From Niveispirillum sp. (GTDB taxonomy: Bacteria; Pseudomonadota; Alphaproteobacteria; Azospirillales; Azospirillaceae): a stretch of DNA of 64,000 nucleotides. This document shows positions 19,576 through 49,461 of this stretch, in pieces. Location of the stretch: positions 1-64,000 of the forward strand of contig NZ_JAGOGJ010000003.1 in assembly GCF_017996735.1 (NCBI RefSeq), written 5' to 3'. The notes beneath the pieces are model-generated. The model made no database searches. It saw only the letters and a program-made list of their open reading frames with translations, and was not told the origin of the DNA. The translations under genes were made by a program, and so were the position numbers. The number at the start of each line of letters is the position of its first letter. The stretch's first letter is position 1.

Positions 19576-19962
19576 TCACCGTAACTGCAACAGGTCCCAC
19601 TTGTTGCCGTACAGGTCCTGGAACACGGCCACGCTGCCATAGGCCTCGTGCCTTGGTTGCTCCAGGAATTGCACGCCGGCCGCAACCATCGCCGCATGGT
19701 CGCGGGCAAAATCATCGGTATGCAGGAACAGGAAGACGCGGCCGCCGGCCTGCCGGCCGATCTGCGCCTCCTGTTCCGGCCCCGACGCCCTGGCCAGCAG
19801 CAGCCGGGTCTCCGTGGCCCCCCTGGGCGCCATCAACACCCAGCGTTTGTCCCCACCCAGATCGGTATCGGACACCAGGGTGAAGCCCGCCCGGTCGCGA
19901 TACCAGGCGATGGCCTCGTCATAATCCCGCACCAGCAGGGTCAGGGCGCCGATGGCAGGCAT
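19576..19962 (-). CDS. VOC family (glyoxalase/bleomycin-resistance fold) protein
   Basis: 128 residues from the ATG at 19962. Opening IGALTLLVRDYDEAIAWYRD, the FLHTDD centre and the ending FQDLYGNKWDLLQL are typical of the vicinal-oxygen-chelate fold. Substrate unknown. The start lies 4 bases after the dapD stop, so it is probably the second gene of a dapD transcript. Confidence 0.85.
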   Translation of the reverse strand: MPAIGALTLLVRDYDEAIAWYRDRAGFTLVSDTDLGGDKRWVLMAPRGATETRLLLARASGPEQEAQIGRQAGGRVFLFLHTDDFARDHAAMVAAGVQFLEQPRHEAYGSVAVFQDLYGNKWDLLQLR

Positions 19963-19966
19963 GGGA

Positions 19967-20812
19967 TCAGTCGCGCAGCAGATCGTTGATCGACGTCTTG
20001 GACCGGGTCTGTGCATCCACGCGCTTCACGATCACGGCGCAGGACAGGGACGGGCCGGGCGTGCCATCGGGCAGCGGCTTGCCCGGCAGGCTGCCGGGAA
20101 CCACGACGGAATAGGCCGGAACGCGGCCCACAAACACCTCACCCGTGGTGCGGTCGATGATCTTGGTGGTGGCGCTGATGAACACACCCATGGACAGGAC
20201 GGCGCCCTGTTCCACGATCACGCCTTCCACCACTTCCGACCGGGCGCCGATGAAGCAATCATCCTCGATGATGACGGGGCCGGCCTGCAGCGGCTCCAGT
20301 ACGCCGCCGATACCGACACCACCCGACAGATGCACATTCTTGCCGATCTGGGCACAGGAACCGACCGTGGCCCAGGTATCGACCATCGTGCCCTTGTCCA
20401 CGAAGGCACCGACATTGACGAAGCTGGGCATCAGCACGACGCCCGGCGCCACATAGGCGCTGCGGCGAACGACAGAACCCGGCACGGCGCGGAAACCGGC
20501 CTGGCGCCAGGCATTCTCGTCCCAGCCCTCGAACTTCGACGGCACCTTGTCCCACCAATAGGCGGCACCCGGCGCACCGGAGATCATGGCATTGTCGTTC
20601 AGCCGGAAGGACAGCAGCACGGCCTTCTTCAGCCACTGGTTCACCACCCAGGACCCGTCCCGTTTTTCCGCCACACGGGCATCGCCCGCATCCAGCAGCG
20701 ACAGCGCACGGTTGACGGCGTCGCGCACGTCGCCGGTGGTGGAAAAGCCCAGATTGGCGCGGTCTTCCCAGGCCTGATCGATGGTGCGGGCGAGATCGGC
20801 GAAGCTGCTCAT
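19967..20812 (-). CDS. dapD: 2,3,4,5-tetrahydropyridine-2,6-dicarboxylate N-succinyltransferase
   Basis: 281 residues, normal length. The left-handed beta-helix hexapeptide repeats are visible from about residue 110 ([20 protein letters not shown], then [16 protein letters not shown]). It transfers succinyl from succinyl-CoA to tetrahydrodipicolinate in the lysine/meso-diaminopimelate pathway (cytosol, trimer). dapE is not adjacent. Ribosome site weak. Confidence 0.96.
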
Positions 20813-20935
20813 CGCGGGGTGGTCCTGATGTCGGAGAGGAAGGATCGGCGGCGACTTTGGCGGTGGCCCGCCGGACCTGTCAACGAAGCCGCCCGCAGAC
20901 CGCCCATGCCCGCACGGTCGTTCGCAAACCGGGCC

Positions 20936-21769
20936 TCAGCGCAGACGGGCCGTCAGGTCGGCCAGCCAGGTCTCCACATCCTCGATCACATGATGCACAT
21001 GGTCACCGGGATGCACCGGTTGCGGCGCGACCTCCCCCACCTTCAGGTCGGGGCGGGAAAATTCGCTGTCGGTGCGGACCCAGACGGTGGTCATGCCGGC
21101 CCCGGCGGCGGGCAGGAGGTTGCGGTGCAGATCCTCCACCATGGCGGCGCGGGTCGGATTGATCCCGAAACGGCGGATCATGGTGGCATAGGGGGCGGGA
21201 TCGGGCTTGGGCACATAATCGGCGGCCACGATATCGAAGATGCCGTCGAAATGGTCCGCCACGCCCAGCCGTTCCAGCACATTTTGCGCATGGCGCACCG
21301 ACCCGTTGGTGAAGATCACCTTGCGCCCCGGCAAGGCCTTCAGCGATGCCGCCAGCAAGGGCGAGGGCGCCACCGGCGTCACGTCGATATCATGCACATA
21401 GGCCAGGAAAGCGGCCGGGTCCATGCCATGGTCGATCATCATCCCGCGAAGGGAGGTGCCGTGCAGCCGGTAATAATCTTTCTGCTTGATGCGCGCTGCT
21501 TCCCGCTCCATCCCCAGCGCCTGGGCGATATAGTCGGTGATCCGCACATCCACCTGGGCGAACAGGTTGCACCGGGCCGGGTACAGCGTGTTGTCGAGGT
21601 CGAAGACCCAATGATCGACATGGTCGAAGGTCCCGGCAAGCGGAGCGGCGGACTCAAGCCCAAGCGGAGCGGCGGACCCAACCCCGAGCGGAGCGGCGGA
21701 CCCAACCCCGAGCGGAGCGGCGGAGGGCGCCCCAAGCGGAGCGGCGGTGGTCTGATAAGTGCTAGTCAT
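20936..21769 (-). CDS. HAD-family pyrimidine 5'-nucleotidase with repeat-expanded N-terminus
   Basis: 277 residues from the ATG at 21769 (an ATG at 21775 also fits). HAD motifs: FDLDNTLYP with the nucleophile Asp, FTNGS, the KPDP lysine and VEDLHRN. This combination is typical of the SDT1/pyrimidine 5'-nucleotidase group, which dephosphorylates UMP/CMP-like substrates. Before the core lies an extra stretch of about 40 residues made of repeated APLGxxSA units, encoded by a 24-bp tandem repeat. No in-frame start exists after the repeats, so they are translated. It diverges from the PAS-GGDEF gene, with only about 40 bases between starts. Confidence 0.87.
   Translation of the reverse strand: MTSTYQTTAAPLGAPSAAPLGVGSAAPLGVGSAAPLGLESAAPLAGTFDHVDHWVFDLDNTLYPARCNLFAQVDVRITDYIAQALGMEREAARIKQKDYYRLHGTSLRGMMIDHGMDPAAFLAYVHDIDVTPVAPSPLLAASLKALPGRKVIFTNGSVRHAQNVLERLGVADHFDGIFDIVAADYVPKPDPAPYATMIRRFGINPTRAAMVEDLHRNLLPAAGAGMTTVWVRTDSEFSRPDLKVGEVAPQPVHPGDHVHHVIEDVETWLADLTARLR
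21638..21748. repeat. 24-bp in-frame tandem repeat, five copies
   Basis: The core AAGCGGAGCGGCGGA (or GAGCGGAGCGGCGGA) starts at 21638, 21662, 21686, 21710 and 21734, exactly 24 bp apart; the spacer CCCAACCCC is shared by the middle copies. On the minus strand each unit encodes eight residues (APLGVGSA-like) of the HAD protein. Copy number could vary between strains. Confidence 0.95.
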
Positions 21770-21809
21770 GACCATAAAATGATCAACCGGGGATGTAACC
21801 GCAAGGGCA

Positions 21810-23540
21810 ATGGACCGCAACGCTCCGGTGCGTTACCACTGCATCAGAAATGGTTACCACGGGAGCGCACCGGCCTTGTCATCCCCCTCCGGCTCCATAC
21901 CGGCCAGCGACGCCGTCGATATCGTGGCCCTGCCGGCGCTGCTGGATGGCTGGCCGGGTCCCGGCCTGACACTGGACGCGCAAGGACGGCCGCTGGTCCT
22001 GAATGCGGGCGCGCGGCTGCTGGCCGAGCGGCATGAAGGCTGGCTGCTTGAACTGGGGCGCTGGGCCGCCACCGGTGGGCCGCTGACGGAGCCGCACCGG
22101 TCGGTGCCGGTGGAAACCGGCAGCGGGCCGGGGGTGGTAGAGTTCACCACGGTGCTGCTGACCGAAGGCGGGGTCCTGTGCCTGGGGCGGGAGGTGACGC
22201 TGGAACGGCGTCTGCGCCACGCCCTGACCGAAAGCCGGCAGCGGTACAAGGATCTGGTCGATGTATCGTCCGACTTCGCCTGGGAGGTGGGGCCGGACGG
22301 GCGTTTCGTCTTTGTCTCCGCCGCGGGGGCCATCGGCTATCATCCCGACGATCTGATCGGGCGGCACCCGTCGGAATTCGTGCTGTCGGATTTCGCCGAT
22401 CAGCCGCTGCCCTTCGATACCGGTGTCGGGATCGAACGGACGGAGGTCTGGCTGCGCGCCAAGGATGGGGCGGCGGCCTGCCTGATATCCTCGGCCGTAC
22501 CCCTGATCGGACCGCAGGGTGACTGGATCGGCGCGCGCGGCGCCTGCCGCGACATTACCGAGGCACGGGTCAAGGGCATGGAACTGGCCCAGGTCCGCCT
22601 GCGCGAGAAATATCTGGGCTATATCGTCTCCTCCACCCGCGACGATGTCGATCCCGGCAAGACGCTGGAGATCGCCGTAGGCGTGGCGGTGAATGCCACC
22701 GGTGCCGGGGGCGCGCGCCTCTATGCCCGGACCGGTGACGTGTTCAGCGAGGCGGCGGCGCAATTGCCCATGCCGGTGGAGATCAGGGGCGCCATCGCCG
22801 CCTTCCTGGAACGGGTGGCCGAGGATGGGGAGCCCACCACCCTGGCGGTCGCCGGCCATGTGCTGCTGGCCAGCCGGACCCTGTTCCGGCACGAGGTGAA
22901 CGGCGCCATCCTGGTCTGGCGCGGCGATGAACAGGATTGGAGCGATGAGGACCTGTCCATGGTCCAGGCCATCGCCGATCAGGTGGGCGTGGCCGTGGCC
23001 CAGGCAAGGTACCAGGAACGGTTGAAGACCCTGTCGGAACGCGACGGCCTGACTGGTCTTTACAATCGCCGTACCTTCATGGAGATGCTGGAGACGCGAC
23101 TGGACAAGCAGACGGGCGGCGGTTCTGCCCTGCTTTATTTCGACCTCGACAATTTCAAGGCGGTCAATGACAAGCTGGGCCACGGCGCCGGCGACGATGT
23201 TCTGCGTGCCGTGGGCGAGTTGCTGGGCCGTCTGGCCCGGCCCAGCGACCTGGCCGGCCGTCTGGGGGGTGACGAGTTCGTGCTGTGGATCGACCGCGTG
23301 GACGAGGAACAGGCCGTGGCCGTGGCCGACCGGTTGCTGCGCGAAGCGGCGGAGTTCCTGCGGCCGCTGTCGGCATCACCGGAAAAACCGCTGGGCGTGT
23401 CGGTGGGCGTGGCCTGCTATCGCGGCGGATCGGGAGAACTGGCACAGGGGCTTGTCGACCGGGGTGATCAGGGAATGTATGCTGCCAAGCGCATGGGCAA
23501 GGGCCATCGGGCCCTGGCCCCGCTCTTGGCGGTCGGTTGA
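21810..23540 (+). CDS. PAS-GAF-GGDEF diguanylate cyclase
   Basis: 576 residues. An N-terminal PAS-like region (about 30-135), a PAS domain (about 145-262, YKDLVDVSSDFAWEVGPDGR), a GAF-like domain (about 270-395) and GGDEF (about 400-565). RLGGDEF is intact, and an RPSD inhibitory site stands five residues upstream, so an active, product-inhibited c-di-GMP synthase is expected. No membrane segment, hence a cytosolic sensor with unknown ligand. The start at 21810 has AAGGGC nearby; an internal TTG about 25 codons on is possible. Divergent from the HAD gene. Confidence 0.9.
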   Translation: MDRNAPVRYHCIRNGYHGSAPALSSPSGSIPASDAVDIVALPALLDGWPGPGLTLDAQGRPLVLNAGARLLAERHEGWLLELGRWAATGGPLTEPHRSVPVETGSGPGVVEFTTVLLTEGGVLCLGREVTLERRLRHALTESRQRYKDLVDVSSDFAWEVGPDGRFVFVSAAGAIGYHPDDLIGRHPSEFVLSDFADQPLPFDTGVGIERTEVWLRAKDGAAACLISSAVPLIGPQGDWIGARGACRDITEARVKGMELAQVRLREKYLGYIVSSTRDDVDPGKTLEIAVGVAVNATGAGGARLYARTGDVFSEAAAQLPMPVEIRGAIAAFLERVAEDGEPTTLAVAGHVLLASRTLFRHEVNGAILVWRGDEQDWSDEDLSMVQAIADQVGVAVAQARYQERLKTLSERDGLTGLYNRRTFMEMLETRLDKQTGGGSALLYFDLDNFKAVNDKLGHGAGDDVLRAVGELLGRLARPSDLAGRLGGDEFVLWIDRVDEEQAVAVADRLLREAAEFLRPLSASPEKPLGVSVGVACYRGGSGELAQGLVDRGDQGMYAAKRMGKGHRALAPLLAVG

Positions 23541-43298: not shown

Positions 43299-43324
43299 GC
43301 CGGGGCAGTTGGCGCTGCCCCGGC
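43299..43324 (+). terminator. Hairpin after the 28-residue ORF
   Basis: Perfect 10-bp GC-rich stem (43299-43308 with 43315-43324), 6-base loop, followed by AACCTTCTC. Terminator-like though the U-run is poor. Between it and the converging sulfite-oxidase-like gene nothing else is seen. Confidence 0.6.
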
Positions 43325-43386
43325 AACCTTCTCAAATATAAGCCCGACGCCGCCATCTGGCAACGGACCGAATCGGTTACCCCGGC

Positions 43387-44049
43387 TCAGCTATAGCGCT
43401 GTTCGGTCCAGGGATCGCCCTCGTTATGGTAACCGCGTTCTTCCCAGAAGCCGGGCCGATCCTCGGCCACGAATTCGATACGGTTCACCCATTTGGCGGA
43501 TTTCCAGAAATAGAATTTCGGGATGATCACCCGCACCGGCCCGCCATGTTCGGTCGTGATCGGCTTGCCTTCCCAGCCATGGGCCAGCAGCACATCGGCA
43601 TCATCGAAAACCGACAGGGCCACATTGGTCGTGTAGCCATCATAGGAATGGAAAACGACGTGCCGGGCCTCCGGCAGTGGCTTCACCACCTCCAGGATAT
43701 GCCTGGCCGACACGCCTTCCCAATGATTGTCGTAGCGTGACCAGGCCGTGACGCAGTGGATGTCCGACACGTCGGTAAAGGGGGGCTGGCTCTTGAACTG
43801 CGCCCAGCCCCAAATGGTGGGGTTTTCCACCAGCCCGTCGATGGTCAGTTCCCACTGATCCAACCCGATCTCCGGCTGGATTCCCAGGTCCAGCACAGGC
43901 CAGTTCTTCACCTCCCGTTGGCCAGGGGGCAGGCGGTCGGCGCGCGGGGCGGGATTGCCCGTCATCAGGCGGCCTTCCTCGGCCCATTTCTGCTTGGATT
44001 CCACCAGCTTGGCGTTGGGCGGGTTTTCAGGCGTGTCGGCGGGGAGCAT
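43387..44049 (-). CDS. Sulfite-oxidase-like molybdopterin oxidoreductase
   Basis: 220 residues. The Oxidored_molyb domain is marked by WELTIDGLV, the molybdenum-ligand Cys in DIHCVTAWSRYDN, and HGGPVRVIIP, followed by FYFWKSAKWV and FWEERGYH. No Tat signal, so probably cytosolic, of the YuiH-like short type. Substrate unknown; it is shorter than eukaryotic sulfite oxidase and lacks a heme domain. Confidence 0.9.
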   Translation of the reverse strand: MLPADTPENPPNAKLVESKQKWAEEGRLMTGNPAPRADRLPPGQREVKNWPVLDLGIQPEIGLDQWELTIDGLVENPTIWGWAQFKSQPPFTDVSDIHCVTAWSRYDNHWEGVSARHILEVVKPLPEARHVVFHSYDGYTTNVALSVFDDADVLLAHGWEGKPITTEHGGPVRVIIPKFYFWKSAKWVNRIEFVAEDRPGFWEERGYHNEGDPWTEQRYS

Positions 44050-44110
44050 GGGTCATCCATAGGTTTGTTGGATTGCTTAGCCCCTTACATAGCGTGCGCC
44101 TTGCCCCACC

Positions 44111-46936
44111 TCAATCCAGGTTACTGATGAAGGTTCGCTTGCCCCGTTTGCCGAAATCCAACGTGAAGAAGACATCCGGCTGTTGCCCGCCATCAACAAC
44201 CTGCGCCAGCATCTGCATGATGCCCATGAATGCCACAGGCAGTGATTTCAGTTTTTTGCCCACCGGCGCCCCCACGCCCGTCCATGGCACCAGCGCAGCA
44301 AGCGCCTGCTTCTGACATTGGTCCATCTCCTCTCGCAGCGACTCGATCGCAGCCTGGGAACGATTAGGATTTGCCTGGAAGCTTTCAGCGATATCCAGGG
44401 CCGCGTTGGCCTTTTCGAAGAAAATCCTCAGTTTTCGTAGCCCATCATAGGCATTAAACATCGTGCTTTGGAAATTTTTCAACGGAATATATTTCAGCTT
44501 TTCGCTGGATTTTTGAGCGTCATCATATAATTTTTTCAAAACTTTGGGCCAAACGCCATCATCCGGCTGTAACAGTTTCTCATAATCGATGATCAGCTTT
44601 CCATCCTTGCGACTAATCGCGGGCGACATATCCGGCAGGTCTTGAAGAAACGGCCACAAGACCGTTCGCATGGCGCCGGGGGTGGCAACGAACCAGTGGT
44701 GAATTTCGGCCCGCATGCCGCTGGCTTCGAACATCGATCGGGCGGCCAGCGCGTGTAGCTGATCGGCCAAGGGTGCCTGGGCCGCCGCACGGATGAGGCG
44801 CGTGGCGGCGGCGTCATCGATATTCAAAAGCGCGCTGAATACGGGATTGAACTTGCCACCTATATTTGGTTCCTGGCGCTTCATTTCATAGTAACGCATG
44901 ATTTCATCACGGGCCACATCATCAACATCGACGCCATTCTGGGCAAAACCATTGATGAAGCCGACGGCTTCACCAAGGTTCCAATTCTCCTCCGTCTGGC
45001 TGAAATTGATTTGGAAGCGGGATTTGCTTTCGGTGCCGATGCTGGTGAAGTTGCTGATGACAATGCTTCTGCTTTCATCGCCGAATGTTTGGGTCTTCTC
45101 CAGCGTACCTTTCGCGTCGATGGTAACAACACCACCGATCACGGTGACTTCCAGTTCCGTCAACAGTTTTGTACGGGCGGATATCCCGAACGAAAGGATG
45201 TTCAGTCCGAACACCTCTTCGGTGAGATCGCTGAACTTGCCGGTGAACTGATCGCTGATCAGGGTGACGCCGGCCGGCGTGGCGGACAGCAGCAGCGGCA
45301 ATGTGCGATCGGGCAACAGGACCAGATCGCGATAATAAGCGCCTGCGGTCGCATCGAACCTGAAATGCGCGCCATAGGACAGGTTGGCGGTCCGCCGGCG
45401 GGAGCGGCTCCAGTTGATGGCAATCAGTTCCTGATTGGCCTGCTCCACCGCTTTGACCACCTTGTCCAGCAGGGACCGCATCTGGTTCAGCAGTTCGCCG
45501 ATGGCCTTCTTGATATTGCTGACACTGCTGCCCAGCGCCTTGGACAGGATATTCTGGTCCAGACGCAATGCCAGTTCGTCGATGGCGCTATCAATCCTGC
45601 CTGAAACCATGGCCAGCGCCTGCTCGATGAAGGCACGTACCTTCGCCTGCAGCGGATCGCTTATCCCTTTCAGTATTTCATCGCGCGCCGTGTTAAGCAC
45701 CCCCGGCAGCGGCAGCTTGGACAGGTCATCGATCACATTGGCCAGCCAGTCGGTGGCACGCTTTGCCGCACTATCGCCGGTTCCGGCACCCAGCACCTCC
45801 TTCAAGAGGTCGTCAAGAATGCCCGGCCCATCGGCGGTGTCTGCAAAGGCCGCCACCTTGTCGGCGATTTCCTGTTTCAGCCAGTCGCCGGGCTTCAGCA
45901 GATGCGCCAGCTTCTTTTCCGCTTTGTCCAGATCATTGTCGATCTTGTCCAGCACCCCCTTGACCTTGTCCAGTTTGCCCAGCAGCCGCGGCGCCAAACC
46001 TGGTGCCAGCGAGGACAGGCCCAAACTGTATCGCAAGGACAGGTCGTACCCTCGTTCCTCGCTCTTGTTCAGTTCGACCTGCACGTCCAGGGCAACGGCG
46101 GGGGCGGCGGGCACGGCCGGCGGTACGACCGCGATCGTCACCTTGAAATCATGCTCCAGGTTGGCGAAGGCCTTGAATGCGGCCTCCACCGTGCCGCCAA
46201 CTGATCCCACGTCCAGCTTGGCGTTCGACGCCCCTTTGAAACCCGTCGTACCGGCATAAGTCAGGCTTTTCATACTGGCCTGGGTGGCCAGGACGTCGCC
46301 GACAGGCCCTACAGCCAAGGGCGGTCCATTGAACGCGTCCAGAACATCGTCGAAATTGTGGAATGGCTGGGCAACACGGGTCAGGGCATTGCCCAGGGCC
46401 TGGAACGTGTATGAATTCTGATCATAGCCGAACAGCCACGAGAGGCTTCGCTGCACATCCATGCTCAACGAGGTGCCGAGCGCACCGGCCGATGCCGCGA
46501 AAGAGCCTGACAGCCTTCCCGCCACTTTAAACCGGATCAGCGCTTCGTCCAGCGCCTCGGGCGTGACGTCATCATCGGCCAGAATTTCGAAACCGATCGC
46601 CGCGTCGCCCTTGATGCCCAGCGTCAGCGACGAACCGCCGGCCACGGCCGCGTCGAATGTCAGATCGCCCCAGCCGAACCACCGCTCTTCCGCCGTGCCG
46701 CCTTCCAGCAATTTCAGGGGCACGATGAACCGCCGGTAGGGGCCGGCGTCCACCTGCTCTCCCAGAAGATAGCGCGCGAGGGTCTCAACATCCGTCGATG
46801 GAGGATTCGCGACAAGGGTTTTGAGGCGATCCAAGACACCCGCGCCATTGCCCACCCGCTGCGTCACGAGATCGAACAGGTCCGCAACATTGGACCCCAC
46901 CATCAACGCCTTGGAACGATTGATAAGCCAGGCCAT
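44111..46936 (-). CDS. Large protein of unknown family, 941 residues
   Basis: Start at the ATG 46936, after GAGGTG; an in-frame start at 46990 would add 18 residues. No signal peptide. Residues about 90-310 look beta-rich (SLTLGIKGDAAIGFEI; VALDVQVELN), about 318-345 and 425-505 are amphipathic helices with heptad-like spacing (LDKVKGVLDKIDNDLDKAEK), about 515-660 are beta-rich again, and the C-terminus is helical. Local base composition is AT-richer than neighbours, especially 44380-44560, suggesting horizontal origin or rapid evolution. It stands alone behind an AT-rich promoter region with a palindrome. I recognise no domain and assign no function. Confidence 0.8.
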   Translation of the reverse strand: MAWLINRSKALMVGSNVADLFDLVTQRVGNGAGVLDRLKTLVANPPSTDVETLARYLLGEQVDAGPYRRFIVPLKLLEGGTAEERWFGWGDLTFDAAVAGGSSLTLGIKGDAAIGFEILADDDVTPEALDEALIRFKVAGRLSGSFAASAGALGTSLSMDVQRSLSWLFGYDQNSYTFQALGNALTRVAQPFHNFDDVLDAFNGPPLAVGPVGDVLATQASMKSLTYAGTTGFKGASNAKLDVGSVGGTVEAAFKAFANLEHDFKVTIAVVPPAVPAAPAVALDVQVELNKSEERGYDLSLRYSLGLSSLAPGLAPRLLGKLDKVKGVLDKIDNDLDKAEKKLAHLLKPGDWLKQEIADKVAAFADTADGPGILDDLLKEVLGAGTGDSAAKRATDWLANVIDDLSKLPLPGVLNTARDEILKGISDPLQAKVRAFIEQALAMVSGRIDSAIDELALRLDQNILSKALGSSVSNIKKAIGELLNQMRSLLDKVVKAVEQANQELIAINWSRSRRRTANLSYGAHFRFDATAGAYYRDLVLLPDRTLPLLLSATPAGVTLISDQFTGKFSDLTEEVFGLNILSFGISARTKLLTELEVTVIGGVVTIDAKGTLEKTQTFGDESRSIVISNFTSIGTESKSRFQINFSQTEENWNLGEAVGFINGFAQNGVDVDDVARDEIMRYYEMKRQEPNIGGKFNPVFSALLNIDDAAATRLIRAAAQAPLADQLHALAARSMFEASGMRAEIHHWFVATPGAMRTVLWPFLQDLPDMSPAISRKDGKLIIDYEKLLQPDDGVWPKVLKKLYDDAQKSSEKLKYIPLKNFQSTMFNAYDGLRKLRIFFEKANAALDIAESFQANPNRSQAAIESLREEMDQCQKQALAALVPWTGVGAPVGKKLKSLPVAFMGIMQMLAQVVDGGQQPDVFFTLDFGKRGKRTFISNLD

Positions 46937-47022
46937 TTTCACCACCTCATGCGATATCTCGGCGGGGTGGCGTCCCTGTTTTCTCGCCACATGATCACAT
47001 CATACAACCATTCGTGACTTCG

Positions 47023-47042
47023 TTAACCATAATTTTGGTTAA
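47023..47042. promoter_or_regulatory. Palindrome TTAACCA-N6-TGGTTAA
   Basis: Perfect 7-bp arms 47023-47029 and 47036-47042 in the AT-rich gap between the 941-residue gene and the MscS gene, 87 bases from the first and 116 from the second. Probable operator or promoter element for one or both. Confidence 0.55.
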
Positions 47043-47157
47043 AATATCGCTTCAATACTTAACAGGCATAGACCTTATGATCGCCTTGGTGAGGACATGG
47101 GCGGAGCGTTGATCCTGCCCCTGGAGGGCCCTAGAGTGCAGCCGCCCCAATACAGGG

Positions 47158-49461
47158 ATGATGGAAATGGAGCGGACGTTGAGCAGGCTGTTGGCCCGCG
47201 GGCTGCTGGTGATCATGCTGACAATGATCATGTCGACAAATGCCCCCGCCCAGGATGCCCCGGCAGCCGACCAGCCCAGCGCGGCCGAGGTCGACGGGCT
47301 GATCACCACGCTGGAGGACCCGGCCAAGCGCGATGCGCTGCTGGCGCAGTTGAAGGCGCTGAAAGCCGTGGAGAAGCCGGCAGCGGAGCCGGAGACGATT
47401 AGCAGCCGGGCGTTGGATACATTGTCCGACCGGATCGACCTGTTCAGCCAGCAGGTGGCCGCGGCCAGCCGCGCCGTCATCGACGCGCCCCACGCCATCC
47501 GCTGGCTGAACCAGCAAGTGTCCGACCCGGTCCGGCGCGATGCCTGGGGCCTGCTGGCCCTGCATCTGGCGGGCATCATCGGCGGCGGCTATGCGGCACG
47601 GTTCGCCATGATCTGGCTGCTGTCCCGGCCACGGGCGGCACTGGGCGCGCGGGCGCCGGGCGGGTTGCCGGCCAAGCTGCTGCTGCTGCTGGCGCGGCTG
47701 GTGATCGACCTGCTGCCCATGGCGTCCTTCGCGCTGGCCGGGTTCGGCCTCTTGTCGGCGACGGAGGCGCCGCGCGCGGTGCGGCTGGCATCCCTGACCA
47801 TTCTGAATGCCAGCCTGATCGTGCAGGGTGTGCTGGTGGTCAGCCGTGTGCTGCTGTCACCGAGTACGGCCAATCTCCGGCTGGCCCGTGTCACGGATGA
47901 GACGGCGCAGTATCTGCTGATCTGGACCCGCCGCATCACCATCATCGGCGTCTACGGTTATTTCGCGGGCGAGGCGATGCGGGTGCTGGGCCTGCCGCCC
48001 GTGCCGCATGCGGCCTGGCTGAAACTGGTGGGCCTGCTGGTGACCGCCATGCTGATCGTCCTGATCCTGCAGAACCGTGACGCGGTGGCCCAGACCCTGC
48101 GCGGCCGGCCCGCCCCCGGCCCCGACGGGCGCGACGATGCGCTGCGCGCCCTGCTGGCCGGCGAGGCGGCGGGGGACGAGCCCTTGCCCGCCCCCAGTGC
48201 AGCCCAGATCCGCCGCCATGCCGCCCTGTCCCTGGTGCGGCAGCGGCTGGCCGATGTCTGGCACATCCTGACCATCTTGTATCTGGGGGCCGTCTATCTG
48301 ATCTGGGCGCTGGAGATCGCGGGCGGGTTTGATTTCGTGCTGCGTGCCACCCTGGTCACGGGCGCCATCCTGGTCGTGTCCCGTCTGCTGTCGGAGGCGC
48401 TGGACCGGCTGGTGGTCCACGGCCTGAAGGTTCCCGACGATGTACGCGCGGCCTATCCGGGGCTGGAGGAACGGGCCAACCGGTACCTGCCCTTCCTGCG
48501 CCGGGTGGCACAGGTGGTACTGGGCCTGTTCACCGTGCTGCTGCTGTTGCAGGCCTGGGGCGCCGACGCCCTGTCCTGGCTGGGGTCCGATCTGGGCCAG
48601 CGGGTGGCGTCCAGCGCCGTCACCATCCTGGTGGTGCTGAGCCTGGCGCTGGTCGTCTGGGAAATGGTCAATGGCGCCATCCTGCGCTATCTTAACGCCA
48701 CGGACGACCAGGGCGTGCGGCTGGTACGCAGCGCGCGGATGCGCACCTTGCTGCCGCTGCTGCGCAATGCGCTGACCATCTTCCTGGTCACCATGGCCGG
48801 GCTGATCGTGCTGTCGGAAATGGGGGTGAATATCGCGCCCCTGCTGGCCGGTGCCGGCGTCATCGGTCTGGCCGTCGGTTTCGGGGCGCAGACCCTGGTC
48901 AAGGATGTCATCACCGGCCTGTTCATCCTGATCGAGGATACGATCGCGGTGGGCGACAGCGTCACGGTCGGTGGCCTGTCGGGCGGGGTGGAGGCCATGT
49001 CGATCCGGTCCATACGCCTGCGCGGCTATGACGGGGCCGTGCACACGATCCCGTTCAGTTCCGTGACCACTGTGACCAACAGCACCAAGGATTTCAGCTT
49101 CTATGTCCTGAACGTCACCGTGGATTACGCGGTGGATACGGACAAGGTGGTGGATGTGCTGAAGGAACTGGGGGCGGAGATGCAGGCCGAACCCGCCTAT
49201 GCCGCCGCCATCCTGGGTCCGGTGGAAATCGCCGGTGTCGATGCGTTCCAGGACAGCGCCGTGCTGATCAAGGGCCGCATCAAGACCCGCGCGGGCCAGC
49301 AATGGGGTGTGGGCCGCGAATTCAACCGTCGCATGAAAAAGCGGTTCGATGCCCAGGGCATCACCATTCCCTTCCCGCAGCAGGTGCTGCATATCAGTTC
49401 CGGCGCCGCGGCAAGCCCGTTCGTGGCCGGCATGGATGGCGCCTCGCGCACGGATGCATGA
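47158..49461 (+). CDS. MscS-family mechanosensitive channel, large YbiO-like type
   Basis: 767 residues. Signal-like start (LLVIMLTMIMSTNAPAQ), a periplasmic helical region, about ten membrane spans, then the MscS pore and beta domain: LLAGAGVIGLAVGFGAQTLV (TM3) and EDTIAVGDSVTVGGLSGGVE, IRLRGYDGAVHTIPFS. The long multi-span N-terminus matches the YbiO/MscM-type channels of osmotic downshock. The start codon may be the ATG at 47158 or 47164. The next gene overlaps by 4 bases. Confidence 0.93.
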   Translation: MMEMERTLSRLLARGLLVIMLTMIMSTNAPAQDAPAADQPSAAEVDGLITTLEDPAKRDALLAQLKALKAVEKPAAEPETISSRALDTLSDRIDLFSQQVAAASRAVIDAPHAIRWLNQQVSDPVRRDAWGLLALHLAGIIGGGYAARFAMIWLLSRPRAALGARAPGGLPAKLLLLLARLVIDLLPMASFALAGFGLLSATEAPRAVRLASLTILNASLIVQGVLVVSRVLLSPSTANLRLARVTDETAQYLLIWTRRITIIGVYGYFAGEAMRVLGLPPVPHAAWLKLVGLLVTAMLIVLILQNRDAVAQTLRGRPAPGPDGRDDALRALLAGEAAGDEPLPAPSAAQIRRHAALSLVRQRLADVWHILTILYLGAVYLIWALEIAGGFDFVLRATLVTGAILVVSRLLSEALDRLVVHGLKVPDDVRAAYPGLEERANRYLPFLRRVAQVVLGLFTVLLLLQAWGADALSWLGSDLGQRVASSAVTILVVLSLALVVWEMVNGAILRYLNATDDQGVRLVRSARMRTLLPLLRNALTIFLVTMAGLIVLSEMGVNIAPLLAGAGVIGLAVGFGAQTLVKDVITGLFILIEDTIAVGDSVTVGGLSGGVEAMSIRSIRLRGYDGAVHTIPFSSVTTVTNSTKDFSFYVLNVTVDYAVDTDKVVDVLKELGAEMQAEPAYAAAILGPVEIAGVDAFQDSAVLIKGRIKTRAGQQWGVGREFNRRMKKRFDAQGITIPFPQQVLHISSGAAASPFVAGMDGASRTDA

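What the first reader, a model, noticed from the sequence alone, without database searches (positions are those of the whole stretch)
44111..46936. 941-residue protein of unrecognised family with beta/helix/beta/helix layout
No signal peptide, two beta-rich regions around a long amphipathic helical centre, atypically AT-rich stretches, and its own palindrome-bearing promoter. The layout recalls pore-forming or lipid-binding proteins, but nothing in sequence proves it. It is the best candidate for an undescribed function here.
Basis: partly seen in the sequence, partly recalled or inferred. Interest (0 to 1): 0.65.

Follow-up and report, generated by a model that had tools for sequence, protein, structure and literature searches.

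The report
Large acquired bacterial orphan protein
A real, probably recently acquired bacterial gene for a 941-residue protein with no detectable relative in the collections searched; what it does cannot be read from its sequence alone.

Summary
The reading frame is real: 46936..44111 on the minus strand, 941 codons, ATG start with a ribosome-binding site. Shuffles of the same stretch never exceed 272 stop-free codons. No family library, PDB sequence search, phage, plasmid, viral-contig or genome search found a relative. The sub-threshold matches I examined are chance hits or generic helical similarity. The best-supported new fact is genomic: in 9 of 9 genus mates examined, the two flanking genes lie next to each other with no such gene between them. 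In this genome about 3.1 kb carrying this gene alone sits there, with atypical codon usage. It is therefore a stand-alone, probably horizontally acquired ORFan. The beta/helix/beta/helix layout is moderately supported by amphipathicity statistics. AlphaFold2 without an alignment failed (mean pLDDT 37 and 44), so no fold was obtained. The 'pore-forming or lipid-binding' reading has no positive support. The palindrome is real and occurs once in the genome, but nothing shows that it regulates the gene. My working mechanism, a leaderless protein that binds a membrane or partner surface through its amphipathic helices as an accessory conflict gene, is a low-confidence inference. The finding is unusual mainly for the size of the ORFan.

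The parts
44111..46936 (-). ORFan gene, 941 aa, single cistron
46942..46948 (-). ribosome-binding site (GAGGTG) about 6 nt before the ATG
   Evidence: read directly
47023..47042 (.). 20-bp palindrome TTAACCATAATTTTGGTTAA, one site in the genome at the pattern TTAACC-N8-GGTTAA
46999..47026 (-). weak sigma-70-like match TTAACG-16-TATGAT, no more than chance
44095..47256 (.). outer bounds of the stretch without counterpart in genus mates (homology ends at 44094 and resumes at about 47257; right edge uncertain)
46007..46756 (-). first beta-rich region, residues 61-310
45413..46006 (-). central amphipathic helical region, residues 311-508
   Evidence: (low confidence)
44987..45412 (-). second beta-rich region, residues 509-650 (weak statistic)
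44114..44986 (-). C-terminal helical region, residues 651-941
   Evidence: (low confidence)
43387..44049 (-). flanking molybdopterin oxidoreductase-like gene (MsrP/sulfite dehydrogenase-type match below cut-off), conserved in the genus
47158..49461 (+). flanking MscS-type mechanosensitive channel gene, conserved in the genus

Best explanation
SHOWN: a genuine protein-coding gene that stands alone between two conserved genes in this genome, is absent from that place in nine genus mates, and has no detectable relative in what was searched. INFERRED, strong (about 0.85): it was gained by this lineage, probably by horizontal transfer, because its codon usage and base composition differ from the neighbours. 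INFERRED, weak (about 0.2): the product is a leaderless protein that acts in the cytoplasm. In this reading a beta-rich body carries a long amphipathic helical segment (residues 311-508) and a helical C-terminal part, and works by binding a membrane or a partner protein through those helices. As a one-gene cargo seen in one species only, it most likely serves a conflict or stress role (for example single-gene phage defence) rather than housekeeping. The confidence given is for the whole statement.
For: Flanking genes adjacent (243-450 bp between the aligned parts) and no orphan in 9 of 9 genus mates fetched. Left junction mapped to 44094. CAI-like index 0.565 against 0.66-0.83 for ten of the eleven comparison ORFs; the eleventh, 0.482, was probably a wrong frame; the index was built from those same eleven ORFs, which favours them. 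GC3 0.71 against 0.78-0.87 for the same ten. No relative in 81 other genomes of the order or in plasmids and phages. Helix moment z = 5.9 and 3.9 in the two helical parts, strand moment z = 3.3 in the first beta part. No hydrophobic leader and no transmembrane-like stretch: the highest 19-residue Kyte-Doolittle mean is 1.55, at a Pro/Ala-rich segment.
Against: Nothing in sequence, neighbours or structure points to membranes, phage or any partner. Amphipathic helices are just as typical of ordinary coiled coils and helical bundles. The second beta region is barely above chance (z = 1.3). A gene that looks foreign by codon usage could also be an old, fast-evolving gene lost in the mates. No terminal repeat or target duplication marks the insertion and no donor was found.
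Confidence: 0.22

Rival explanations
1. A generic long-helix scaffold (coiled-coil or structural protein) without membrane or conflict role.
For: The library matches in residues 311-508 are to coiled-coil-like or helical families (Baculo_PEP_C, DUF948, ATG17-like, apolipoprotein), all below their cut-offs.
Against: Does not explain the beta-rich parts or the presence in a single species.
Confidence: 0.25
2. A far-diverged member of an existing large-protein family whose relationship lies below sequence detection, for example the leaderless beta-rich DUF6603 proteins that two relatives carry in other places.
For: DUF6603 proteins of 1625 and about 3240 aa exist in 2 of 59 genomes searched, one of them in the same genus; like the orphan they are large and, by eye, rich in amphipathic strands.
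Against: phmmer with all filters off: best E 0.58. hhalign probability 0.1%. Own genome has no DUF6603 match. The Pfam scan of the orphan shows no DUF6603 match.
Confidence: 0.15
3. A helical membrane-perforating protein of the alpha pore-forming kind.
For: 12.1-bit match of residues 798-887 to NCBIfam's alpha-xenorhabdolysin A model, E 0.087; amphipathic helices.
Against: The cut-off is 125 bits, and only 91 of 339 model positions match. The annotated neighbours include no partner gene. No hydrophobic insertion segment was found. Such weak scores are common for helical stretches.
Confidence: 0.06
4. A relic of a prophage structural gene (tape-measure or tail protein).
For: 12-bit match to a tape-measure family over the helical part, E 0.1.
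Against: No match in 50,697 phage records nor in six viral-contig scans. The flanking genes are conserved in the genus. Tape-measure proteins often carry transmembrane helices (recalled); none here.
Confidence: 0.06
5. Not a functional gene: a spurious or decaying frame.
For: No homologs, so selection cannot be measured.
Against: 941 codons without a stop against at most 272 in shuffles; coding-type codon-position GC; ribosome-binding site; no significant Pfam match for the six other frames tested.
Confidence: 0.04

Closest known systems
Bacterial ORFans (taxonomically restricted orphan genes)
   Same: No detectable relative, seen in one species of the genus, atypical composition, placed between conserved genes.
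   Different: 941 aa is, by recall, much longer than typical ORFans; no length distribution was measured here.
DUF6603 proteins (PF20248)
   Same: Large proteins, rich by eye in amphipathic strands, in the same family of bacteria.
   Different: No sequence similarity to the orphan; those sit among other large genes, this gene stands alone.
Alpha-xenorhabdolysin A family (NF033928)
   Same: Helical stretch with a 12-bit match.
   Different: One tenth of the cut-off score; no partner gene among the annotated neighbours; different size and beta content.

Membership tests
ORFan gene | no detectable homolog in the databases examined | tested here: met
   chance hits explained. Coverage is partial: phyla other than its own were reached only by the peptide-pattern scans of genome contigs and by plasmids, phages and viral contigs.
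ORFan gene | is a real coding sequence | tested here: met
Horizontally acquired gene | absent at the orthologous site in relatives | tested here: met
   9 of 9 genus mates fetched; the tenth mate, G003, had no match to the flanking gene and its site was not examined
Horizontally acquired gene | donor or mobile-element signature | tested here: not met
   no long related DNA in the genus, none in plasmids; no terminal repeats; none of the ten neighbours scanned matches a mobile-element family
DUF6603 | match to PF20248 over its cut-off of 27 bits | tested here: not met
Alpha-xenorhabdolysin A | match over the NCBIfam cut-off of 125 bits | tested here: not met
   12.1 bits
Alpha-xenorhabdolysin A | membrane insertion and pore formation | not testable with these tools
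   needs protein
Phage tape-measure protein | phage gene neighbourhood and family match | tested here: not met
Known anti-phage defence protein | PADLOC family match covering the protein | tested here: not met
   only LeoBC, 12.8 bits, E 0.012, over residues 322-513

The most novel reading that the evidence does not exclude
The gene is the first seen member of a new protein family with its own fold: a one-gene conflict system in which a beta-rich leaderless body holds amphipathic helices in check and releases them on a membrane or target when triggered by phage or stress, with the unique palindrome as operator of its own control.
Probability: 0.07. Interest if true: 0.65.

Novelty: new member of a known kind. 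Interest (0 to 1): 0.27.

Why it matters
A 941-residue protein with no relative found in its order, in large samples of its class and phylum, or in phages and plasmids is a good subject for structure determination: it would either expose a relationship invisible to sequence or show a new fold. The single-gene gain in one species also makes a direct deletion test easy.

Tried and rejected
Library searches on the whole protein (Pfam, NCBIfam, PHROGs, PADLOC, PDB sequences) and on four pieces (Pfam): only sub-threshold matches. Weak genome hits: G254 (4.4e-4) is an Ig-like repeat protein by eye; G715, G756 and G410 lie, by my reading of their sequences (G715 and G756 printed, G410 seen only as an alignment there), in an FAD-linked oxidase, enolase and a pyridoxamine-phosphate-oxidase-like protein. 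These are unrelated to each other, so I count all four as chance; the family names are from recall.

DUF6603 was tested because the flavour of the sequence recalled it; rejected. Internal duplication: blastp and Smith-Waterman between the four parts gave nothing beyond the stretches the parts share by construction. Six other frames in and beside the stretch: no significant Pfam family. No Rfam family in 43300-47400; the window's one tRNA is at 1349.

Structure prediction: whole protein mean pLDDT 37.1, pTM 0.24; residues 634-941 mean pLDDT 43.8, pTM 0.33. No fold search was run, since a low-confidence model gives meaningless matches. DNA-level matches of the stretch in genus mates are 38 and 29 bases only, E 9e-5 and 6.8e-4.

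Papers: DUF6603 gave 0 papers (listing only). An orphan-gene search gave a listing with abstract openings; of PMC2447361 I saw one passage, in the reference list, of no use. I make no claim that the gene is or is not in print.

Full report
The observation. The minus-strand frame 46936..44111 translates to 941 residues. A GTG further upstream would add 18 residues, but the ATG is the one preceded by GAGGTG at about 6 nt (read). It is a real gene: the longest stop-free run in 200 shuffles of the same stretch is 272 codons, and codon-position GC is 0.62/0.41/0.71, of coding type. Its codon usage departs from the neighbours: the CAI-like index is 0.565, against 0.66-0.83 for ten of the eleven comparison ORFs. 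The eleventh (19952..22036, 0.482) was picked only as a long ORF and is probably not the true frame; I give it here but do not rely on it. The index was built from those eleven ORFs themselves, which favours them somewhat. GC falls to 38% over residues 781-840.

The layout. Amphipathicity statistics support helix in residues 311-508 (z = 5.9) and 651-941 (z = 3.9), and strand in 61-310 (z = 3.3). For 509-650 strand is weak (z = 1.3). The low-confidence AlphaFold models place most helices in the same parts, but mean pLDDT of 37 and 44 forbids any reading of fold. There is no leader and no transmembrane-like stretch.

Family. No library gave a match near a curated cut-off (Pfam; NCBIfam), nor a strong match in PHROGs, PADLOC or PDB sequences. 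Most of the sub-threshold matches fall in the helical centre and name unrelated coiled-coil-like families. The toxin-family match is 12.1 bits against a cut-off of 125.

Distribution. The protein was searched in whole genomes as follows (samples overlap): 0 of 98 relatives besides its own genome; 0 of 81 other genomes of its order; in the phylum sample 1 of 397 others, and that a chance hit to an Ig-like repeat protein; in its class 3 of 384 others at E <= 0.01, all judged chance hits to unrelated proteins; in the class of G254, 1 of 48, the same chance hit; in the class of G101, 0 of 369; in the order of G130, 0 of 397. In the large samples only the two best candidates per genome were scored, and the tool warns for that an empty answer by itself shows nothing. 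Plasmids and phages: no match. Genome contigs, all phyla, was scanned twice by peptide patterns with no relative confirmed, and viral contigs six times. Pattern scans need a nearly exact short peptide, so relatives of moderate identity in other phyla can have been missed. This is the main gap.

Gain at a conserved site. The flanking oxidoreductase-like gene was found in 10 of 11 genus genomes, own included. In the nine others I fetched 7.6-12.6 kb around it. In all nine the MscS-type gene lies next to it, with 243-450 bp between the aligned parts, and no match to the orphan. In the window the same interval is about 3.1 kb. Four empty sites were compared at base level; the output shows three of them before it was cut. 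In those three, homology stops at window position 44094, 17 bases beyond the orphan's stop codon; on the right it resumes at 47257 in two and at 47275 in the third, inside the MscS-type gene. So, measured on one mate (G005), about 214 bp of ancestral sequence, including the first codons of that gene, is replaced by about 3.1 kb. The right edge is thus uncertain. No long DNA match of the stretch exists in the genus or in plasmids, and no terminal repeats or target duplication were found. Gain, rather than loss in nine mates, is an inference, the simplest one, and codon usage agrees with it.

Upstream. A 20-bp palindrome lies at 47023-47042. Its pattern with free centre occurs once in the whole 7.47-Mb genome. 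It lies in the stretch without counterpart in the mates; the four empty sites printed do not contain it. The single promoter-like match next to it is no more than shuffles give. Autoregulation or a dedicated regulator is possible but untested.

What it most likely does. The evidence fixes what kind of gene this is (a stand-alone ORFan gained by one species) much better than what it does. From the anatomy I infer a leaderless protein working in the cytoplasm, whose amphipathic helices bind a membrane or partner. From the one-gene, one-species distribution I infer a conflict or stress role. Each step after 'real acquired gene' is inference, and I give the whole about 0.22. A plain helical scaffold is at least as likely. 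The pore-forming reading has no positive evidence.

Verdict. But an absence of relatives is not a mechanism. ORFans are common (established knowledge), and the distinctive point here is size. Interest 0.27.

Noticed in passing
L028 8476-18201 (-) and L029 8731-13608 (-): Two related genomes carry DUF6603 proteins (about 3240 and 1625 aa) beside other very large proteins, several without a Pfam family, next to a lipase-domain protein in one and a DUF4135 protein in the other. No paper in the library holds the term DUF6603.
   Followed up: partly
window 47158-47256: The first codons of the MscS-type gene (its leader region) do not align with those of the genus mates, as if replaced together with the gain of the orphan.
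   Followed up: partly
G000 whole genome: At 7.47 Mb it is the largest of the 11 genomes of its genus searched (others 4.7-6.1 Mb), so much accessory DNA may have been gained, or some contamination is present (4.34% estimated).
   Followed up: no
window 44417-44596: The AT-rich stretch of residues 781-840 has distinctly worse codon fit (0.35) than the rest of the gene, as if the gene were itself mosaic.
   Followed up: no
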